Assembly: GCF_000499845.2 (NCBI RefSeq)
Contig: NC_023756.2
Coordinates: 45,523,947-45,587,946, forward strand
DNA: 64,000 nucleotides
Direction of reading: 5' to 3'
DNA from: Phaseolus vulgaris
Lineage: Eukaryota; Streptophyta; Magnoliopsida; Fabales; Fabaceae
Below the pieces are notes generated by a model. It was not told the DNA's origin and did no database searches. It was given only the letters and a program-made list of their open reading frames with translations. Positions 1,034 through 64,000 of this stretch are shown piece after piece. The first letter of the stretch is position 1. Every line of letters starts with the position of its first letter. The position numbers and the translations under genes are program-made.

Positions 1034-1916
1034 GTGGTAATCCTGCAGAAAGAACATTCCTATGCAAATGCTTTTGAGCATATTCTGCAGCTAACCGCCC
1101 TCCATGTCCATCATAAATTGCAAAATGTGCACATCTGAAAACCAAACAGCCAGAGTTACCAAGAAATCAAGTACACAATAAGTCCACAAGCACACATAAG
1201 TGCTACTTGAATAGCAATTCTTCCATGAGCACAACCAATGAAGAACTCATATAACACTAAAAAGAACTTCAAAAAAGGTCTTGGTTGTCTTCAACTATTA
1301 TTTTAATGTACCTAGACTCTTTGATTGATTGCTCTAGCGTGCGCCATTCTCATTGGCATATCCTTTCACTCAAACTACCCAACAAATAACCAACATAAAC
1401 AACAACGAAGTGAAACAAGAATTTGATATATCTAACGAGAGAAAAGTGCAGTGACAATGCACTGTTGACAGTGTAGTAAACATATGAACGTGTATCGCAT
1501 GTCCTCACATTGTTAAAAAGTTCCAATCTAAAAGAAATCCCTAAATCTAGAAGAATAAAAACATCACACCTTTTTTCTCTCTCAAAAAGCAAGAAACTGG
1601 TTCTTGAAAATAGACTTCATGGAATTAGTACATGAATATGACAATAAATAAGCTTAAACAAAAGAAAAAAGAACCTCAATTTTCCAGGATAATCTAAACT
1701 TGCATCGAGAAGCACGACCCACGCATCCTCCATCGTGAGCCTGGAGCCCTTGTCTTCGGCGGCATCCGCTTCAACGAGGAAAGATGGCTCCTTTACGCCA
1801 TTATCATCGGAACCCTTTGCACAAGACTCAATCTTTGGCTTCTTGGATGCAACACCATCCTTCTCGCCCTCTGAATCGGCACATTCACGCTTCTGGGTCT
1901 CTGTGCTTTCGCTCAT
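1034..1916 (-). CDS. Protein phosphatase 2C, 5' part only (two exons, PP2C 8-like)
   Basis: Ser/Thr phosphatase of the metal-dependent PPM/PP2C family. Exon 1 (1916 down to 1675) starts at ATG and encodes a hydrophilic N-terminus with a KKPK basic patch, then VEADAAEDKGSRLTMEDAW, the first PP2C metal-site motif. Exon 2 (1134 to 1034) continues in frame with CAHFAIYDGHGGRLAAEYA, which holds the DGHGG motif. Donor and acceptor dinucleotides are canonical and the phases fit. The sequence closely follows Arabidopsis At1g18030 (PP2C 8) as I remember it. Exon 2 ends at a GTGAGT donor, and the rest of the catalytic domain must lie to the left of the window. The usual His in RHTMED is Leu here, a position variable in the family. 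The gene is divergent from the dioxygenase gene about 1 kb away. Confidence 0.9.
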
Positions 1917-2925
1917 TTTCTTCTTCCCTTGTTTTGCTACAACGAATGGGAAAGGGCTTCAAACCCTAGAAATCAAGTACTCTCATTTCTATTGGCCACT
2001 GCTGCTGTCAATCAATAACCACTCTTTACAAGAAACTAGTTAATTGCATTTTTAGTTTTTCACTGTTAATCTTAAGATTTTTTATATATTATTTTTATAA
2101 ATCTAGATTATATAAACTAGGAAAGAGTATAACCTATGTAGCAAACAGTGATACGGACACGGAGATATCATAATTTTTAAAATGTAAGATATGGAGACAC
2201 GGATCTACATATTATATAAATTGTGTGTTAAAATTTTAAAAAATTCAACAAATATATTTTTGAATCGAATACTTTACCGATAGGTGTCTTACGAATATCT
2301 ACGAATGTCGACACCGATACGTGTGTTCATCACGGATACAGTCATTTAAAAGAAGTGTCTAAGCTTCGTAAGTAATATTAGAAAGTAAAATTTGTTCAAC
2401 TACCTGAGTAATTAAACTCAAATTCTAGGGTTAGTTAGGGTTTCTTCACCTAATTTTACATAAACTTCATGATTATTACTTATTATCATCATTATTAAAA
2501 AAATTTGAGAAGTGAAATAAATGAAATTTATACATATTTATGAGATTTTTATCAAACTGAAATCAACAACCAAATAAATTATTTATATATTAATATAATA
2601 CTAGGTTTTAATTAATAATTAATAATGATAATGCATTTACTTTTCCCCAGTATTTCCTTGTTGTGTTTATTCAGACAACAAAGCAGTGGCCCCATGGCAA
2701 AAACAAAAATAAAAAAATGTTTTTTATGTTTCCAAATTCATTCACTAATTAGTTCATTTATAAAACCCAATCACTTCTCTTAATAACTCTCTCATCTTCT
2801 TCCCCCAACGTAACTCAACAAAACCCTAATCTGCAACTCCGATTTCGCTTCTTCTCCGACAAAACCCTAATTTCCCTCCGCTCTTCCCTATGCCCACCTC
2901 GTAGCTCACTTACCCCGCTCCGAGG
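1917..2925. promoter_or_regulatory. Shared upstream region of the divergent PP2C and dioxygenase genes
   Basis: About 1 kb lies between two start codons pointing apart, so it should hold both promoters and 5' UTRs. A TATA-like TTATAAAAC at about 2758-2766 is followed by pyrimidine-rich leader sequence up to the dioxygenase ATG. The stretch around 2140-2350 has degenerate inverted GATACGGACACGG-like words at both ends (near 2150 and 2325), suggesting an old dispersed repeat. The rest is A+T-rich. Confidence 0.5.
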
Positions 2926-10204: not shown

Positions 10205-11614
10205 ATGAACATTGCAGAGCCAAATATGGTGTTTTCCACTCTCATGAAGACATTACTAGGAGCTGCAGATTGCAACTTTGGAAAATCGTGTGAAAGGTTT
10301 CAACAAAATTATGATCTTCTGTGGTTTAATAATCTCTTCTGCCCTCAGATCATTCCCTTTACTCAAGAACTTCATGTCATCAACTCCAACCACTCTCAAG
10401 AAACATTTGCTAAGAATTCTTTAGACACATTGCCTTCATTGGTTAGCCACAAAACAACCCAAAAGAAGAATATAACCCTTGTTCTTGATTTGGATGGTAA
10501 TTTTCCTCTATCTTTAAACTCTAGGGTTTCTCATCTATTACAATTTTGCTTTTTATATAACATCTCTGAGATTAATCTCTATCAGAAAACCTAGCTAGTT
10601 AGGTTTTGTGGAGTTCTTCGTATCTTCTCACTTTTTTTCTGATATAAAACAATATCTGGTACTTTTTTCCCATCCAAATTACTATACAATCTTATGATAT
10701 AAGGGTTTTTCTTATGAATGTTATCAATTTTGTTGCGGTTGTCTTGTATAGGGTTCATTTTTTAGTAGTTGTTTTGAAAGTTATTATCTTGTTAGGGTGT
10801 CTATGTTTCTTTGTATATGAGTTGGATCATTTGTTGATAAAAGAAACAATGTTATGATACATATGTGATTTGTTGATACACAGAAACGTTGGTTCATTCT
10901 TCTTCGATGCCATGCAATGCTGACTTCGCATTTACAGTGTTCACTGATAGAGAGAAAACTGTGTATGTTAGAAAGAGACCTTATCTTGAAAAGTTTTTAG
11001 AAAAAGTATCAGAGATGTTTGAAGTCGTAATCTTCACAGCAAGTCAAAGCGCATATTCTGCAAAATTGCTTGATATTCTTGATCCTCATAATAAGGTTTT
11101 TGCGCGAAGAATGTACAGAGAATCATGCAAATGGATAGATGGTCGCTGCTTCAAGGATCTCACACTTCTTGGAATTGACCTAGCCAAAGTGTTCATCATT
11201 GACAACACTCCAGGGGTATGTTATTTCTTTCTTCCTCTTCTGTTCATCTTTTTTTCTCTTCATTTTTTCTTCCACTGTCATAATATCTACCATGCAATCT
11301 TGAAAGTGTGTCAAAGTGTATGTGCTGTTGACATTTTTTTCTTACAAAAAGTGTTTATTTTAGAAAACCCTAAACCCTATACTGAAACTTGAAATCTGTT
11401 CTTATGACAGGTATTTAGATTTCATGTTCACAATGGAATTCCTATCAAAAGTTGGTACTGTGATCCAACAGACCATGCTCTGCTTCATTTGCTCCCATTT
11501 CTGGAGAAACTGGTTGATGTGGATGATGTCAGACCCATTATTGCAGCAAAATATGGGAAAGGAATTAATTGTGAATACTCTTCCCTTTCCCCACCTCAAA
11601 CTATAAGAATATAG
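10205..11614 (+). CDS. FCP1/SCP-like CTD phosphatase (HAD superfamily, 275 aa, 3 exons)
   Basis: A HAD-type phosphatase of the kind that removes phosphate from Ser residues, typically in the RNA polymerase II C-terminal repeat. Exons 10205-10496, 10884-11215 and 11411-11614 join in phase with GT-AG borders. The catalytic DxDxT signature is split by intron 1 and restored by splicing: VLDLD from exon 1 and ETLVHS from exon 2 (Asp95, Asp97, Thr99). Motif II is VIFTASQSAYSAKLLDILDP, and the acidic motif near the end is FIIDNTPG at the exon 2/3 border, followed by GIPIKSWYCDPTDHALLHLL. The ~85 residues before the domain are Asn/Gln/Ser-rich with no recognised motif. It is shorter than plant CPL1-4 because it lacks BRCT or dsRNA-binding domains, so it belongs to the small SCP-like group. 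Confidence 0.88.
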
Positions 11615-13625: not shown

Positions 13626-14554
13626 ATAATTGAATCTATTTATAAATAAATAATTAAAAACTATATAGTTTTAATATATGTTATAACTAAATTCTCTAAA
13701 ATTTTGAAAGCGTAACTCTACATTACAAATAAGTTTTCTAAAGTTTCATAAATTTATTTCAAAAATTCAACAAAATTACCTTGGATAATAAGTATTTCAA
13801 CAACTAATCTTGGATAATAAGTATTTCAACAGTATTTGCATTTTTTTTATGATTGATGGTAGTTAGCTTATATGATTATATTTTATGTGCAATTTTACTT
13901 TTAGTTATAATTGTTAATATTTAATTCTCATAATTTTGAAACATTTTAAATTAAGGTCTTTATTTTAAAATGTATCTAATAATTAATTGAATGTGAAAAT
14001 GAGAAGTAATAAAGTTAATTTCTCCTCGCAATATGTTCTTGCCATCTTTAGTCAAGAACACACATGGTTTTAAAGCCCACATCTAACTGATAATGCAATT
14101 ATTTAGGATATATAAAGTACTGATAAACATTAGTTGTTGTCGAGCTATATAACAGTGGCTTGTGACCCAAGTTGGGAAAGTAAAGTGATGGAAGAAGCAA
14201 TATAGGAGTAAGAAGAAAATAGTTGTGTTATTTAGTTTCTTCTATCTAGTATAATAAACATAAGTGTGGCTGAATTGTGATTTTTTGTTATGACTGTCGT
14301 CAACGGCCATTGAGTCTGTATTGGAAAGTAGTGTGTCTGTGGTAGAAGAGAGAAGTTATGATGATCATTAAAGATGGTGGAAAATGGAGTTGAAGGGTTA
14401 TTTCAAACGACAAGTCATTTTATGAAAATTTTGAAACTCGTGGTATTTTATGGAGGTTTTTAAACCCATGATATTTAACAAAGGTTTTGAAACCTATGAT
14501 ATTTTATGAAGGTTCTTAAACCTTGGTATTTAAAAGGGGTTCCAAAAGACTTTA
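13626..14554. other. A+T-rich spacer inside the CACTA-like remnant
   Basis: No gene seen. 13790-13830 repeats the phrase CTTGGATAATAAGTATTTCA twice. The segment 14160-14400 is less A+T-rich but has no long open frame. The end holds the three ~36-bp units noted for the CACTA-like remnant. Confidence 0.3.
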
Positions 14555-14985
14555 CTTGTTACTTGTTACCTGTTACCTGTTACCTGCTACCTGCTACCTG
14601 TTACCTGCTACCTGCTACCTGCTACCTGCTACCTGCTACCTGCTACCTGCTACCTGCTACCTGCTACCTGCTACCTGCTACCTGCTACCTGCTACCTGCT
14701 ACCTGCTACCTGCTACCTGCTACCTGCTACCTGCTACCTGCTACCTGCTACCTGCTACCTGCTACCTGCTACCTGCTACCTGCTACCTGCTACCTGCTAC
14801 CTGCTACATATTACCTGCTACCTATTACCTGCTACATATTACCTGCTACCTATTACCTGCTACCTGCTACCTAGGTTTACCTGTTACCTGCTACCTGCTA
14901 CCTAGGTTTACCTGTTACTTAGTACCTGGTACCTGGTACCTAGGTATCGCTACCTGGTACTTAGGTACCGCTACGCTACCTCATA
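14555..14985 (+). repeat. TACCTGC heptamer minisatellite
   Basis: A near-perfect tandem array of the 7-bp unit TACCTGC, about 45 units from 14565 to 14873, with TTACCTG variants at the left and ACATATT/ACCTATT variants at the right. A degenerate tail (CCTAGGTTTACCTG, CCTGGTACCTAGG) runs to about 14985. Because 7 is not a multiple of 3, every plus-strand frame reads the same cyclic peptide, so the long open frames here are artefacts. The minus strand reads a stop every 21 bases in each frame. It is not a telomere repeat (plants use TTTAGGG). Confidence 0.97.
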
Positions 14986-15052
14986 CGTATTACACTTTTT
15001 TTCGTATGATATTAATTATTTTAAATTTAAACACGTTGCAGTTTTAAAATTA

Positions 15053-15430: not shown

Positions 15431-17587
15431 TAATTGGAAAACTTTATTATTTCCATAATAGTTTAAATTAATTTCTAAATTCAATTAAATTACTCAAATT
15501 CAGTTACGAATTTCGATATTAAAATTATAATCATGAAAAAATAAATCCAATTACGGATTGCATCTCAATCTCATAGTTATAACAATAGAATTTTAAATTC
15601 AATTACGAACACATCTCAATCTCCAAAATATTACTATTCATATCTCTTAAACCAAATATATTCATATAAAATATAGGTTTAATAGTTTTTTCTTTATTTA
15701 TAATTTTTTTCAATTTTAGACAATATATTACAAATAGCACCGTTAAATCACAACACAATTAATTTTATCAACGTTACACAACAATCAATTTTGCTATTAT
15801 ATGAACGTTAACATTAACAGAAGAAACTATTTCATTAATTTTAATAAAATTAAGATTAAATTAAAAAAAAATAACAAATAAAGAGATAAAAGCTATTAAA
15901 CCTTAAATATATTAACACATTTTTTCTCATTTCTTTTAATTAATATTATTCCAAGGTTTTGACATCTATATAATGTCACTGTCGGTTCATTAAATGCTGT
16001 CTTCTAAACTATTTCCAATTTGTTTTTCTTCTTTCCATGTGCTATGTTCCTTTATTTAAATTATTATTATCTTTAATTTATTTTCTTTCTGATCTAATAA
16101 AGCATAAATGTTCTTTAACACCAACATTCACAAGGCAATCTTTTAATAATAATTCTCTCACATTTTTTTATTACTACCCTCTTATTATAAAGTACAAATA
16201 ACGTGGTGTTGGGTGGGAATATTATATATGACTTGGTAAAAAGAAAAACTTTATGAACCATCATTGTTCTTTAATCTTAAAAATTAAAACTAATGTTTGG
16301 TTGCAAGTTTAGTTGACTTTTAATGTCATTCTTCATCACAAAATATTTGCTTTCAATGCAAGATTATGACATTGTCTAAACTATTTAAATTTTTATAATA
16401 AATTTGATTAAGATACTCATATTTACTTTTCCACAATTTCTTAAAGTCAAATATATATTCACTTCTTAAACAAATGACTAATTTTAGGGTTTTTTTTTAT
16501 AATTTTACTAAAAAAATTATTAAATAAAAATAAGCTTTAAAAAAATCATTATATTAACTAAATTATATATAATTTAAAAATTAAATAAGTATTAATATAT
16601 AAATAATTTTTATTATTAATAAAATTTATAAACTAATTTATTATTATTACTTTAAAAATTATCCACATCCACTAGGTATCTTCTATTCTAGGACTTTTCT
16701 ATTGATAATTTTAATTTTGTAGTAATTTTTTATTTCAGAAAATGTAAGAAAATAAGATAATATAATTTCTAACAATAAAGATGAAATGAATAATAAAACT
16801 TAAAAATATTAGTTGCTGATGAGAGAAGAAACAGTATGCATGTTGCTGTACTTTAAAATATACAAAAATGTGTCACACTCAACACCTTAAAATCTCCAGT
16901 TGTTAAGATTCTTCCATCCAATCCAAATCATTGTTTTTAAAAATGGAAAATACTAATATCTCTCTAAAACTAGTTAGAATTTTTCAAAAGGTTTTTTTAA
17001 TTGAAATAGGTTAAAATGTATGATATTTATAATATTAAAAAATATTAACCTAAGATACCTATTAAAGAATAAAAAAACTTAGTTTTTACATTCTTTAATT
17101 GGCATCTCAAGATATTACTCCCTGGTGTTCCAAAACAGTAATATTTTAATGTTTTTTATTCTGATTAAGGAATATTTAATTAATACAAATTTAAGAAAAA
17201 TACTGCTTTAAATAATTTCTGTCGCTTTCTCAGTTACAAACTAATTATTCTTATTTATTATAGAAATATTATAAGAACAGCTTCAAGTTAAAAGAATGTC
17301 GTTTTAAGTTGAAAGAGGTATTTAGTATTATTTAAGTGAAAATTTTATTCTGTTCTAATTTTTTTTAATATACTCATATAACTTTGAATTGTTTTTTTTT
17401 TAATTTATTAATCTGGGTTTTTACTATTAGTAATGAAAAAGACCTTTGAACAAGAAGAAGATCTTCACCATCACACATGTGCAGTGGTGAATAACCAAAC
17501 ACCAAATACACATAACAAACACACACTTCCATTAACAGAGACAAACAATAACAACAACATAGAAAAAACAGAACACAGAGAAAGAAG
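15431..17587. other. A+T-rich spacer and LEA_2 promoter
   Basis: No gene seen. 16500-16650 resembles half of the foldback CACTA MITE family. The last ~100 bases before 17588 are A/C-rich (CAAACAATAACAACAACATAG) and look like the LEA_2 5' UTR. No clear TATA box could be fixed. Confidence 0.45.
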
Positions 17588-19243
17588 ATGCATGCCAAAA
17601 CAGATTCTGAGGTAACAAGCCTTGCCGCGTCTTCTCCCACGCGCTCCCCTCCTCGCCGCCCTCTCTACTACGTTCAGAGTCCTTCCAGGGACTCCCACGA
17701 CGGCGAGAAGACTGCCACGACATCGTTTCACTCCACCCCTGTTTTGAGCCCTGTTGCTTCCCCTCCCCACTCGCGCCACTCCTCCTCCACGCGCTTCTCC
17801 AAGAAGGACCACAGCCACAATCTGAAGCCCTGGAAGCAAATCGATATCATTGAAGAGGAAGGCCTTCTCCAAGGTGATGATCGCCGCAATGGGCTCCCTC
17901 GTCGCTGCTACTTTCTCGCCTTTGTTGTTGGGTTCCTGCTTCTCTTCTCCCTCTTCTCGCTCATCCTCTGGGGGGCTAGTAGACCCATGAAGCCCAAGAT
18001 CTCCGTCAAGGTCTATTTCCATTTTGTCTCTGCTTCTTTTTGGTTTTGATCCTTGGTTTGAGCTTTTCAGGGTGGATGGTGAGGTGGGGCATGATCAAGT
18101 TTGAGTTTTCAGGATGGAGTCTGAGATGGTTCGTGGTCAAAAAATTTCATTTTTACACTGGAATACGAACTGGGGCTTAATGGTTTTTCAATTTTAGTAT
18201 GAAATATTACAGTCAATTTCGCGTTTTTAGGATGAAATCTGATCTGGGTCTTCCTAGTTTTTGAATTTCGGAATGCAATCTTAACTGGGTCTGGATAACT
18301 TTTAAACTTTAGAATGAAACACAAAGTGAGTCTTGATCGATCTCGTGTACTTAGAATGAAATCTGGAGCGGGTCAATCTTTTAATTTTACAATGAAACGT
18401 GAACTGGATCTTGGTAGTAATTTTTCTCTTTTTAGAATGATTTATACGAGCTTGGTGATGATCAATTTTGAAGTTTTAGGACGAAATCTGAAGTGGGCAT
18501 TGGTGAAGTTTTCAATCTCAGAATGAAACATGAACTGTGTGTTGATCAATACGAAATCGGAAGTGGGCCAAGTTGTAGTTCGAAATGTCATTTTTGGAGT
18601 GAACAGTGTAGCTCTTGATTAATTTGATGTTATTAGGATGAAATCTGAAGTGGGTCTATTTTTTGGGTCATTTTGCAGAGCATAAAGTTTGATGATGTTA
18701 GAGTACAAGCTGGTTCAGATCCAACTGGTGTGGCCACCGATATGATCACAATGAATTCCACTTTGAAGTTCACATACCGCAACACAGGCACATTTTTCGG
18801 GGTCCATGTCACAGCCACACCCGTGGAACTCTCCTATTCAGACATCGTAATTGCTTCTGGCAATGTAAGATTCATGGAAACCAAGCAACACAGCACAGAG
18901 ATGTTTGGTGTTTCACTTTTTCTAACGTTGGAACTGGTTGTTGTTGTTGTTGTTGTAGATGAAGAAGTTTTATCAGTCTAGGAGGAGCCAAAGGTTGGTG
19001 AGTGTAGCAGTGATGGGTAACAGGATCCCTCTATATGGAAGTGGTGCTAGCCTAAGTAGCACAACGGGTATGCCCACAGTGCCTGTGCCATTGAACCTAA
19101 ACTTTGTCCTACGATCTAGGGCTTATGTGCTTGGGAAATTGGTGAAGCCTAAGTACTACAAAACCATTCAATGTTCCATCACTTTGGATCCCAAGAAGCT
19201 CAGTTCTCCAGTTTCTCTCAAAAAATCTTGCAGACATGATTGA
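17588..19243 (+). CDS. LEA_2 / NDR1-HIN1-like single-pass membrane protein (297 aa, 3 exons)
   Basis: Member of the plant 'late embryogenesis abundant hydroxyproline-rich glycoprotein' group (like At1g45688 and At5g42860 as I recall). Exons 17588-18010, 18679-18864 and 18959-19243 join in phase. Residues 1-106 are Ser/Pro-rich and cytosolic, with the group signature RRPLYYVQSPSRDSHDGEK. A hydrophobic segment at about 107-129 (CYFLAFVVGFLLLFSLFSLI) is the membrane anchor. The rest is the LEA_2 beta-sandwich domain (SIKFDDVRVQAGSDPTG; MNSTLKFTYRNTGTFFGVHV), ending with KYYKTIQCSITLDPKKL. Such proteins sit in the plasma membrane with the LEA_2 domain outside or associated with the wall; the exact role is unknown. 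Exon 3 follows a (GTT)n-rich polypyrimidine tract. Intron 1 is filled by a tandem repeat. Confidence 0.9.
18068..18668 (+). repeat. Degenerate ~43-bp tandem repeat filling LEA_2 intron 1
   Basis: About 14 successive units, each starting near TTTTAGGATGAAATCTGAA and going on with .TGGGTCTTGGT..A, then a T-rich tail. Clear starts lie near 18111, 18225, 18310, 18351, 18388, 18433, 18476, 18519 and 18634, and length varies from about 33 to 45 bp. Each unit carries its own T-rich stretch plus TTTTAG, the shape of a plant splice acceptor. Confidence 0.8.
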
Positions 19244-25217: not shown

Positions 25218-30751
<5,534 letters not shown>

Positions 30752-41188: not shown

Positions 41189-42749
41189 AAAATAAAATAT
41201 AAAAGTTTCTTTCCACCTTCATATCTAAAACCCACAGATTAATCATCTACTTTATTTTCCAACACTAATAACTGAAGAATAAAACAATGCACCAACATTA
41301 AATCGAAATCTTAATATCACAAGAGAACATAAAAACACATCTCTCTTTGAATGCTTAATAATCTTTGCAAGGTATGCAATCTCACACATTCACTTCTTAA
41401 AGCTCTTTAACTAAGCTCAAAGTAATTCGAATCCAATGTTCCACTTCAAGCATATGATGGTTGCCTTAAGGGACAACAAAATGATTTTCACTTAAATGCT
41501 TGATTTTAGTTCCAAATGACTAAACTTTCTTGTCTCACTTATAATGTGTACGTAAACCCGCGTTCATTAACGAGATGCCATTCATACCAACTTGTCTTCT
41601 TCCAAACTAATATTGGTTAAGAAGACAATATCCTTTCTTAATTAGACTACTAAACAATTTCTAGCTATTCATCTCCTCACAATTTAAGAAATATAATTTT
41701 ATACAATTTCTATTTATTTTTGTGACGATATTTTTAGCATCTTTATTTATAATGGAGTAATATTTTTTATCACAAAATTTTTAATTATGAATTATGTCAA
41801 AAATATTCTTATGACAAATATTTTAATATTTTATAGCAATTTTATTTTAATATTTTTCAGACCAATCCTTATAGAAGATAAATAGTGTTATAAACCTTCC
41901 TAACATATATTCAAATTATCCCCAAAAAAAACATTAAAATCCTACCAACAACAACGGACAATACACCAGTAAACACTCAATCAAAAACAAGAAATTTGCC
42001 CAACAACTAAAAAAAGTCACTTAATCAAATTCACACAAACCAGATGATGAAGCCACCAGTCAGATTAAGAAAAACGATGAGAATATTTTAAAAGTTACGA
42101 AATATCAAACCTTTAATTGTATTAGAACGAACATTTTTAATACATCAATCATACAATCTTACATTATTCTTGTGTCTCAAATCTCATTTATGTAAAAAAA
42201 AAAAAAATAGAATGTGGATGATGAATTAATCTCTCTAGAATGTGATTTTTTTTCACCTTAGTGATATTTTGTATCGGTATCAAATGATTTGTATGCAGAG
42301 ATAGCATAGTACAAACATAATGAATTTTCACCTCTCTCAGTCTCTTATCTTTCAGTCGTACATTGTTTCCATGTGTTAAGAACATGTTGAATACGAAAGG
42401 CAATGACAGGATTGAGTCTTTCTTTGCAAAGGGTCTTTTTCATTTACAGATATGCTGTGACCTTCAACCCAATACAGACAAATCAAAATTTAATAGCTGA
42501 GCCATTCGCTTAAGACAGCCTTTATAAATGATGTCCCAACTTGCGACCTTCTAAGGGTTCATCTCAATACAGTACATCACCTATAGCTACACACCTACGA
42601 CCTAGGATTCACCAAACACTCTTTTTCTTCTTATTATTTTTTCTTCATTTTGCAATGCATATCTTAAATTGGCAAATAATACACTCCAAGATCTGGTTTC
42701 TATATCTGGAATTATTGCTAAAGAGAAAAGAGAAGATGAAACGCTCATG
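41189..42749. other. A+T-rich spacer, nothing recognised
   Basis: No coding frame with a recognisable product. 42530-42610 is less A+T-rich but unassigned. Confidence 0.4.
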
Positions 42750-62068: not shown

Positions 62069-62512
62069 CTCTCTTTTTCATTCATTTACTATTAGTTGTT
62101 TCAGGTTTATTTTAAACATTCTAAGAAAAATTAATGGTAAATAAATAAAAAAGAAACAAGTTACAAAATTAATCTTATCATCGTTAACTTTTTTTTTTTA
62201 CGTTTACCATTAATATTTTTAGGGATTGCAACAGAAATAATAATATTTATATCAAAAAAATTAAAACGAAACTTATGTACTGGATTAATTTGTTTAGACC
62301 ACAAATATTATGAACAGAAAGAAGTAATATATGTTTGGAATCAAAGGATCTGCACTTTCTTCCCCCAAACATGACTCAAATCCCAAATTATTCATACATA
62401 TAGCTTGCGATTATATCAAAGAAAGTTCAGTTGAATATTTATTTATTTATTTGCATAATTTAAAATGATGTGGTGTGGTGTGGTCCATTGAAGAAGAAGA
62501 ACATGAAATTTT

Positions 62513-62904
62513 CTAGGTCACGGGTAGCACTATTCCAGGCAATGGTGCTGGATAATTTGGATCTGGTGAAGAAAGTGGCGATGGCATTTCACCCAGTTTC
62601 CTCATATTCAAATCTGCAAATTAAACACAGCAAGATCATGTCAACGGTTCAAAGTGTTTTTCCAGAATCAACAAAACCCTACGTTTTGAAGATACACTCA
62701 TTTTTCCAGAAAAAAAAAAAAGATGAACATGCATGCATGACAGATACGTGGTGGAAGTGATCGTGATTATATTCTTCTATGCATTTTCATGATTCACTGC
62801 GAAGACTAACCTGAACCAAAACTCAACTGCAAAAGCAGAACAAAGGCTACGATTAACAGAAGAAAACGTGGAGAGATTAATGAGAGACTGAAGCTGTTAG
62901 CCAT
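62513..62904 (-). CDS. Putative small secreted peptide (64 aa, 2 exons)
   Basis: Minus-strand exon 1 is 62904-62811 and exon 2 is 62613-62513, with a GTTAGT donor and TTTGCAG acceptor joining in phase. The product starts MANSFSLSLISPRFLLLIVA, a clear signal peptide (hydrophobic core about 14-28), with probable cleavage near FGS. That leaves about 33 residues that are Pro-rich, including KLGEMPSPLSSPDPNYPAPL and ending LPVT. No Cys, and no match to CLE, CEP, PSK, IDA or RALF that I can see. Support for a real gene: TTTCACCATGGCT start context, a TATAAAT box about 55 bp upstream with an adjacent TACGTCA, and AATAAATAAATAAATA about 70 bases after the stop (62445-62430 region). Function unknown; apoplastic signalling is possible but unproven. 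Confidence 0.6.
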
Positions 62905-62958
62905 GGTGAAACTTGATAGTGTGTGTGAGACATGCTTCAGAATAAGAAATCAAGAAAA

Positions 62959-62966
62959 ATTTATAA
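62959..62966 (-). promoter_or_regulatory. TATA box of the small secreted-peptide gene
   Basis: The minus strand reads TACGTCATTATAAATTTT; the TATAAAT is about 55-60 bases above the ATG, leaving a 5' UTR of about 25-30 bases. The TACGTCA just upstream has the core of a bZIP (TGACG/ACGT) site. Confidence 0.5.
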
Positions 62967-64000
62967 TGACGTAAGAAGAAAACCCTAACTTTTTTTCTTC
63001 GCAAGAGACGACGGGGATTGATGAAGAAAAATAAAATCAGGTGTATTAGTAATTAGTTTTAGTAGTCAATAATCAAATGAGAAAAATTGCGTAATCGTAA
63101 CGTTCAAATATTTGACTTGGTATTGTAAGACATGAAAGTCCTAATGAGTTGCTATTGGTTGTCCAAATGAGTGGCTATTGGTTTTCATAAGAATATTTTT
63201 TAAGACACTAAAAAAATTTCTACTAATTAGATTTTAAAATTGGTAAGTAAAATTTTGATTAATTTTTCCTTTTTCTCTAGCATTGTTTTTTACTCTTATC
63301 ACACTATCTTAGTTCTCTCCCTTCTCTCTTCATTATTTCTTATCATCTCTTCCTTTTTCTTCTTCTTTCTCTCTGTCAATATATTGATGTAAACAATATT
63401 AATATTTAAACCTAATAAGTTGGAGTAGTGATTAAGCATTTAGTGTTTATACGTTACAATATTGTTCAAAACTCAATTAATTATTATTGGTCTTGCCATT
63501 CATTTTCTTTTTCATTATTTAGTTACTAGCATTTTAATTTTACGTGAAATGGACTGGTAACGTACCAATTCAACATTTCTTTTCCTAAAACGCAAAATTT
63601 TTCATGACTTACGAGATATACATACTAAACATTCCACCCCTCAGTTCTACCATAAATAGAAACGCTAATGATGTAAACATGGAGAAAACCGACCTTGGCA
63701 ATTGACAATTGACAAAGACGTGACAATAGATATGGCAATTCATTGAAATGAGAAACTTGGCAATGCATACTTTCTTCTTCAATACAAACTCTTACCATCA
63801 ATGATGATTTGGTTCAATAAAAAAAATTTATCGACGAACTAGTGCAGAAAAAGTCAAACACAATGATTTTTTTAGCAATTAGACAATAGTTTCAAAACTG
63901 ATGTCTATTAGCATGTAGTCTATTCTATTGAGATATAGACGATGGTTGTTCTAGAACTACCGTCTATAAGTCACATATAGATAAAAAAAATTATTTTTTA
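62967..64000. other. Right-edge spacer with transposon-like fragments
   Basis: 63418-63490 has TTGGAGTAGTGATTAAGC and TTGTTCAAAACTC, spaced like pol III boxes A and B of a SINE. From about 63838, ACTAGTGCAGAAAAAGTC followed by ATAGACGATGG and TACCGTCTATAAG resembles the start of a CACTA element with subterminal repeats that continues past the edge. No gene seen. Confidence 0.35.

What the first reader, a model, noticed from the sequence alone, without database searches (positions are those of the whole stretch)
62513..62904. Hidden two-exon gene for a 64-aa secreted peptide of unknown family
Signal peptide, in-phase intron, good start context, TATA box with adjacent ACGT element and downstream AATAAA-type signals line up in under 550 bp. 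The mature part is short, Pro-rich and Cys-free, like many plant peptide hormones, but carries none of the known hormone motifs I could recognise. Each exon is too short to be found by ORF length.
Basis: partly seen in the sequence, partly recalled or inferred. Interest (0 to 1): 0.75.

Follow-up and report, generated by a model that had tools for sequence, protein, structure and literature searches.

The report
Bean gene family for secreted peptides
A tiny two-exon bean gene is real and is one of ten side-by-side copies of an apparently undescribed, mainly legume family of secreted proline-rich peptides, in which near-identical 'shipping label' exons are paired with different cargo exons.

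Summary
The gene is real. Its spliced 64-aa product is identical to a Phaseolus vulgaris database protein, "hypothetical" PHAVU_004G153042, so it is annotated but nameless. It is the first of ten intact paralogues, plus one broken exon 2, in a 45-kb tandem array running past the window's end. Members were found in eight legume genera, Phaseolus included, with one weak hit in Euphorbia. No Pfam family matched and no paper naming it was found. Each copy has a signal-peptide exon, a phase-1 intron and a ligand exon. The two halves have different histories: promoter, exon 1 and 5' intron differ by 6-11% among nine copies, exon 2's first 62 nt by 22%, the 3' flank by 47%; trees conflict, and PvJ joins an unrelated 5' half to a shared 3' half. 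Best reading: precursors of secreted, probably hydroxyproline-modified signalling peptides, built like Brassicales PROSCOOPs with another motif. Expression, processing, receptor and function are untested.

The parts
62811..62904 (-). Exon 1: ATG and signal-peptide-like MANSFSLSLISPRFLLLIVAFVLLLQLSFGS; mean Kyte-Doolittle 3.1 over residues 14-27
   Evidence: identical in P0002
62614..62810 (-). Phase-1 intron, 197 nt, GT...AG; same phase in the ten intact paralogues (188-784 nt)
62513..62613 (-). Exon 2: DLNMRKLGEMPSPLSSPDPNYPAPLPGIVLPVT and stop; core DLNMRKLGEMPSPLSSPDPN, then variable tail
62711..63014 (-). 5' module as tested (110 nt upstream + exon 1 + first 100 nt of intron): mean divergence 0.092, 0.062 and 0.106 by part among nine array copies
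62433..62653 (-). 3' module as tested (last 40 nt of intron + exon 2 + 80 nt after the stop): mean divergence 0.21 to 0.49 by part among nine copies, with a conflicting tree
62959..62966 (-). TATA motif TTATAAAT, 62 nt upstream of the ATG; motif present in ten of ten copies
62969..62972 (-). ACGT element next to the TATA box; in three of ten copies only
62979..62988 (-). TTAGGGTTTT (resembles the plant telo-box, a recalled name); exact in seven of ten copies
62446..62451 (-). AATAAA polyadenylation-type signal (sequence reading only)

Best explanation
PvA (PHAVU_004G153042) and its nine neighbours encode prepropeptides of a secreted signalling-peptide family found mainly in legumes. Shown: exon 1 encodes a signal-peptide-like sequence that ends at the exon junction; exon 2 encodes a short, Cys-free, Pro-rich peptide whose first ~20 residues (consensus DLKMRKLGxMPSPPPSPxxN) are conserved across legume genera and whose tail is hypervariable; the genes form a same-strand tandem array; the 5' half (promoter, signal exon, 5' intron) and the 3' half (acceptor, ligand exon, 3' flank) have different histories. 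Inferred: the protein enters the secretory pathway and loses its signal peptide near the exon junction; a subtilase-type protease may cut in or after the RKLG stretch; prolines of SPPPxP are hydroxylated and possibly arabinosylated; the peptide is sensed by a leucine-rich-repeat receptor kinase. Recombination within the intron lets one common expression and secretion cassette be paired with different ligand exons, which is how the family would diversify, as expected of immune or symbiosis-related phytocytokines.
For: Exact database match. Ten intact two-exon copies with one intron phase and open frames. Homologues in Glycine, Vigna, Sphenostylis, Spatholobus, Sesbania, Trifolium and Medicago. 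Between genera the core is more alike (0.67) than signal (0.47) or tail (0.14), ten sequences, two of them bean. RKLG in 42 of 45 sequences; no Cys in the mature part in 43 of 45. A Sphenostylis protein, P0005, carries the core twice, as multi-ligand precursors do. Mosaic history: divergence profile; each half rejects the other half's tree in four of four AU tests, p 0.019 at weakest; PvJ's 5' half is no closer to the other nine than shuffled sequence is, but its exon 2 and 3' flank are. The anatomy matches PROSCOOPs (PMC6382344, PMC9784617; passages seen).
Against: No expression, splice-read, proteomic, processing or receptor evidence was available. Pooled dN/dS of exon 2 is 0.57 (core) and 0.67 (tail), so diversifying selection is not shown; the tail value rests on about ten alignable codons per pair with dS 1.2. 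No SignalP run was possible, and position -3 before the exon junction is F in PvA, so the exact cut is uncertain.
Confidence: 0.6

Rival explanations
1. Small extensin-like or proline-rich wall protein: the SPPPPP motif is hydroxylated and glycosylated and the peptide acts as structural glue, not as a ligand.
For: SPPPxP resembles extensin SP3-5 motifs (recalled), and one Vigna homologue is named 'extensin-like' in the database. Pro content of the mature part is 25-41% in the ten bean copies.
Against: Mature parts of the ten bean copies are only 24-39 residues as cut. Extensins are long and repetitive with Tyr cross-linking motifs (recalled); here a run of SPPP or longer occurs once in 31, twice in 5 and not at all in 9 of 45 sequences, and the bean mature parts hold at most one Tyr. 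The best conserved part is the charged KMRKLG, which has no recalled structural role in extensins.
Confidence: 0.15
2. Linear proline-rich antimicrobial peptides acting directly on microbes, with variable tails set by an arms race.
For: Basic KMRK plus a Pro-rich tail, tandem expansion, hypervariable tails.
Against: A short core kept across genera suggests a fixed partner; tails are not uniformly basic (PvA's has no Lys or Arg); no antimicrobial family matched in Pfam. Dedicated antimicrobial-peptide databases were not searched.
Confidence: 0.12
3. The apparent mosaic of 5' and 3' halves is only rate variation: the 5' half is constrained and the 3' half free to drift, with no exchange.
For: Promoter and signal peptide are plausibly constrained; one of the four AU tests is only modest, p 0.019; the compared trees were estimated from the same short data; divergence rises again further upstream (0.143 at 300-111 nt before the ATG).
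Against: The 5' intron, expected to be nearly free, differs by only 11% while the exon 2 core has dS 0.36. PvJ shows the opposite pattern: 5' half no closer than shuffled sequence, 3' half shared. Within bean the signal exon is more alike than the core, between genera less alike.
Confidence: 0.15
4. PvA in particular is a decaying copy with no function, while other copies (such as PvE, PvH, PvI, PvJ) carry the function.
For: PvA and PvB depart from the core (SPLSSP, TRPGSP) and are among the most divergent in exon 2; a broken exon 2 and core-less PvF show decay in the array.
Against: Frame, splice sites and stop are intact in PvA and PvB, and both keep NMRKLG.
Confidence: 0.25

Closest known systems
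PROSCOOP / SCOOP family (PMC6382344, PMC9784617, PMC11331138; passages seen)
   Same: Small secreted Cys-free precursors, exon 1 = signal peptide and exon 2 = conserved motif in most members, tandem arrays, divergence outside a short motif, motif not at the extreme C-terminus, some precursors with two motifs, hydroxylated prolines in PROSCOOP10.
   Different: No fixed SxS/SxT (12 of 45 mature parts hold one anywhere); a KMRKLG-SPPPxP core instead; legumes, whereas PROSCOOPs and MIK2 are reported as exclusive to Brassicales. The passages I saw do not mention mosaic signal exons.
IDA/IDL, CLE, CEP, PIP peptides (motifs recalled)
   Same: Short, Pro-containing, Cys-free secreted precursors; hydroxyproline likely (recalled).
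   Different: Recalled IDA, CLE and PIP motifs in 0 of 45; SPG[IV]GH (CEP) in 1 of 45, P0037.
HypSys, hydroxyproline-rich systemin (review PMC11756074, passages seen)
   Same: Pro-rich secreted peptide with expected hydroxylation.
   Different: The review's table lists it from Nicotiana, Solanum, Petunia and Ipomoea. No sequence comparison was made here.
CTNIP (PMC9191895, passages seen)
   Same: Small secreted family, often unannotated.
   Different: CTNIPs need two conserved cysteines; 43 of 45 mature parts here have none.

Membership tests
PROSCOOP/SCOOP | SxS (or SxT) motif in the mature peptide | tested here: not met
   12 of 45 mature parts contain S.[ST] anywhere, 33 do not; motif definition from PMC11331138
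PROSCOOP/SCOOP | Exon 1 signal peptide, exon 2 motif, Cys-free, tandem array | tested here: met
   bean array; PROSCOOP structure
PROSCOOP/SCOOP | Perception by MIK2 | not testable with these tools
   needs a bench assay; MIK2 homologues reported only in Brassicales
IDA/IDL | P.PPS.PS.[RK]HN motif (recalled) | tested here: not met
   0 of 45
CLE | R..P.GP[DN]P.H motif (recalled) | tested here: not met
   0 of 45; PvH and PvI hold RNPPSGPRPPG and RNSPSGPRPPG, CLE-like by eye but without the [DN] and H positions
CEP | SPG[IV]GH tail (recalled) | tested here: not met
   1 of 45, P0037
PIP/PIPL | SGPS..G.GH (recalled) | tested here: not met
   0 of 45
CTNIP | Two conserved cysteines, 9-11 residues apart | tested here: not met
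   43 of 45 mature parts have no Cys; the exceptions are P0012 and P0042; criterion
HypSys | Hydroxyproline-rich peptide with wound or defence activity | not testable with these tools
   modification and activity need mass spectrometry and assays
Any Pfam family | Match above the curated cut-off | tested here: not met
   0 families for PvA at E up to 10; for 16 and 30 scanned members only unrelated families, best E 0.017 and 0.019; the one score shown, 13.4 bits, is under its cut-off of 31.5

The most novel reading that the evidence does not exclude
A legume peptide array that diversifies by recombination in the intron: one homogenised promoter plus signal-peptide exon is mixed with different ligand exons, so that expression and secretion stay common while the ligand changes. 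The KMRKLG-SPPPxP peptides would be the legume counterpart, by convergence, of the Brassicales SCOOP phytocytokines, with their own unknown receptor.
Probability: 0.35. Interest if true: 0.75.

Novelty: new variant of a known kind. Interest (0 to 1): 0.6.

Why it matters
If true, this is a family of candidate signalling peptides in major crops (bean, cowpea, soybean, clover), for which I found no name in Pfam or in the papers searched, with a defined core that can be synthesised and assayed at once. The array would also be a clean natural case of ligand diversification behind a shared secretion cassette. Seven of its ten copies were not among the database proteins that my searches returned.

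Tried and rejected
The orphan exon 2 at array position 42245 was first taken as an alternative ligand exon for a shared signal exon. A search with soybean- and Vigna-type signal sequences found its own exon 1, so alternative second exons are not needed in bean. The other orphan (28125) has a broken acceptor (AA for AG) and no exon 1 was found; treated as a remnant.

Diversifying selection: pooled Nei-Gojobori gives dN/dS 0.57-0.67 in exon 2, and 1.38 in exon 1 on very few synonymous changes. Not claimed.

Copies elsewhere in the genome: none convincing at E up to 5. Best outside the array: C11 (E 0.42) and C1 (E 0.44), C6 (E 3.1), none. The tool scores only the best candidates and searches exon by exon, so this is a lower bound.

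Literature: motif strings gave six papers, by title and start of abstract none on this subject. Gene identifiers gave three papers, all holding Glyma.15G254000, there a NAC gene or miR164 target, apparently an identifier of another annotation version. Structure prediction was not run: a ~33-residue Pro-rich chain was not expected to give a useful fold. The PDB profile search gave one chance-level hit, E 0.97.

Full report
OBSERVATION. On the minus strand, ATG at 62904, exon 1 to 62811 (94 nt), a GT-AG intron of 197 nt in phase 1, and exon 2 62613-62513 ending in TAG encode 64 residues. The product is identical over all 64 residues to PHAVU_004G153042, a 'hypothetical protein' of Phaseolus vulgaris. 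The window lies on contig C4 (48,048,378 bases, the contig length given for that protein) at 45,523,947-45,587,946. So the gene is neither chance nor entirely hidden: it is in the databases, without a family or function.

ARRAY. A DNA search of the same genome found further copies downstream, all on the same strand. An eleventh exon 2 has a broken acceptor. PvJ has a different signal exon, closest to those of soybean and Vigna. Three whole-genome protein searches found no convincing copy outside the array. PvA, PvB and PvE came up as database proteins; the other seven were not among the hits returned.

RELATIVES. A profile of nine bean copies found proteins of Sphenostylis, Glycine, Sesbania and Vigna (E 2.6e-11 to 3.4e-4). 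A wider profile, built with those, added Medicago, Trifolium and Spatholobus (E about 1e-18) and one Euphorbia protein (E 1.5e-3). The Euphorbia protein keeps MKMRKLG and SPPPSPGLN and would take the family beyond legumes if real. With Phaseolus that makes eight legume genera. The searches need exact 5-residue words, so absence elsewhere is not shown. For motif counts I took 45 sequences: the 10 bean copies and 35 others (P0005-P0030, P0032, P0034, P0036-P0042; not all independent, some fragments or weak hits). P0031, P0033 and P0035 were dropped because they look like signal exons read on into the intron; P0043 was not examined; P0002-P0004 are PvA, PvB and PvE. RKLG is in 42 of 45; the misses are PvC, PvF and PvG. 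No Cys in the mature part in 43 of 45, the exceptions being P0012 and P0042.

WHAT IS CONSERVED. Between genera (ten sequences, two of them bean and one Euphorbia) mean pairwise identity is 0.47 for the signal, 0.67 for the 18-residue core and 0.14 for the tail. Within bean (PvA-PvI) it is 0.85, 0.63 and 0.24; within Glycine (nine proteins, two of them models of one locus) 0.79, 0.73 and 0.16. The core is thus the constrained part over long times, while the signal exon is kept alike within a species.

MOSAIC HISTORY. Among PvA-PvI mean divergence is 0.143 (300-111 nt upstream), 0.092 (110 nt upstream), 0.062 (exon 1) and 0.106 (first 100 nt of intron), then 0.214 (last 40 nt of intron), 0.221 (first 62 nt of exon 2), 0.487 (rest of exon 2) and 0.466 (80 nt after the stop). 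Pooled synonymous divergence is 0.051 in exon 1 and 0.358 in the exon 2 core. Maximum-likelihood trees of the two halves conflict: each half rejects the other's tree in four of four comparisons (AU p 0.019, 2e-75, 1.4e-5, 1.6e-5; KH p 0.03 to below 0.001). The trees come from the same short data, so these p-values are indicative. PvJ is the clearest case. Its 5' half differs from the other nine by 0.470 (upstream), 0.467 (exon 1) and 0.578 (5' intron) on average, against 0.486, 0.521 and 0.542 for ten shuffles of it, all within the shuffled range. Its exon 2 start and 3' flank differ by 0.199 and 0.357, below every shuffle (lowest 0.462 and 0.542), and by 0.11 and 0.13 from PvI. Detectable similarity to PvJ begins 29 nt before exon 2 in six of nine copies (C, D, E, F, H, I), 15 nt before in PvG and 11 nt before in PvA and PvB. 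The proteins of the two signal types still look related by eye, so the 5' halves are probably old relatives, not strangers. The simplest reading is recombination or gene conversion with exchange points in the intron. Rate variation alone does not explain PvJ. Misassembly was not tested.

PROMOTER. The TATA motif is present in ten of ten, TTAGGGTTTT in seven of ten, the ACGT element in three of ten.

MECHANISM. Shown: anatomy, array, family, constraint on the core, mosaic. Inferred from general knowledge of plant peptide precursors: secretion, removal of the signal near the exon junction (many homologues read VSA|D there), proteolysis around RKLG, hydroxylation of the SPPPxP prolines, perception by a receptor kinase. 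P0005 of Sphenostylis carries the core twice, and two models of one Glycine soja locus (P0007, P0008) share the signal but differ in the core exon; both fit a core that is the functional unit, though they are gene predictions.

COMPARISON. The closest published parallel I saw is PROSCOOP: 14 Arabidopsis genes in two tandem clusters, two or three exons, no Cys, in most members exon 1 the signal peptide and exon 2 the motif (PMC6382344, PMC9784617; passages). A 2024 study places PROSCOOPs and MIK2 only in Brassicales, with SxS as the shared motif (PMC11331138, passages). The bean family is built like it but fails the SxS test (12 of 45), so it is not filed as a member. Recalled IDA, CLE and PIP patterns are in 0 of 45 and the CEP tail in 1 of 45; the Cys pair of CTNIP is missing (PMC9191895, passages). 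For plant defensin-like genes, recombination tracks have been counted in signal and mature parts, though recombination was rarer there than in NLR genes (PMC5731061, passages). Searches for motif strings and gene identifiers found no paper on this family, and the listings of wider searches showed none by title (and 10 of 19 papers). Supplementary files and papers outside the held library were not searched.

LIMITS. No expression data, no SignalP, no DNA of other legume genomes, no receptor test. dN/dS in exon 2 is below 1.

Noticed in passing
C4:45,606,671-45,610,363 (beyond the window, in L011): A LINE-type open frame of 1231 codons lies between PvD and PvE; further retroelement-like frames occur near 45,588,500 and 45,598,000-45,598,900 (identities by eye).
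   Followed up: no
window 14500-15047: Tandem repeat readable as (CYLLPAT)n in all three plus frames.
   Followed up: no
window 1617-1958, 10877-11392, 17552-18981, 27793-30184: Open frames that look, by recall only, like a PP2C phosphatase start, a CTD/FCP-type phosphatase, an LEA/NDR1-like protein and a nuclear poly(A) polymerase.
   Followed up: no
P0037 (short contig): One family member ends SPPPPPSKSPGVGHY, a tail like that of CEP hormones (recalled); one of 45 only.
   Followed up: partly
P0007 and P0008 (Glycine soja D0Y65_042206): Two database proteins under one locus name share the signal part and the last 15 residues but differ in the core exon: possible alternative ligand exons in soybean, or a gene-model effect.
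   Followed up: no
P0040 (Euphorbia peplus): A possible non-legume member (E 1.5e-3) with MKMRKLG and SPPPSPGLN; if real the family is older than legumes.
   Followed up: no
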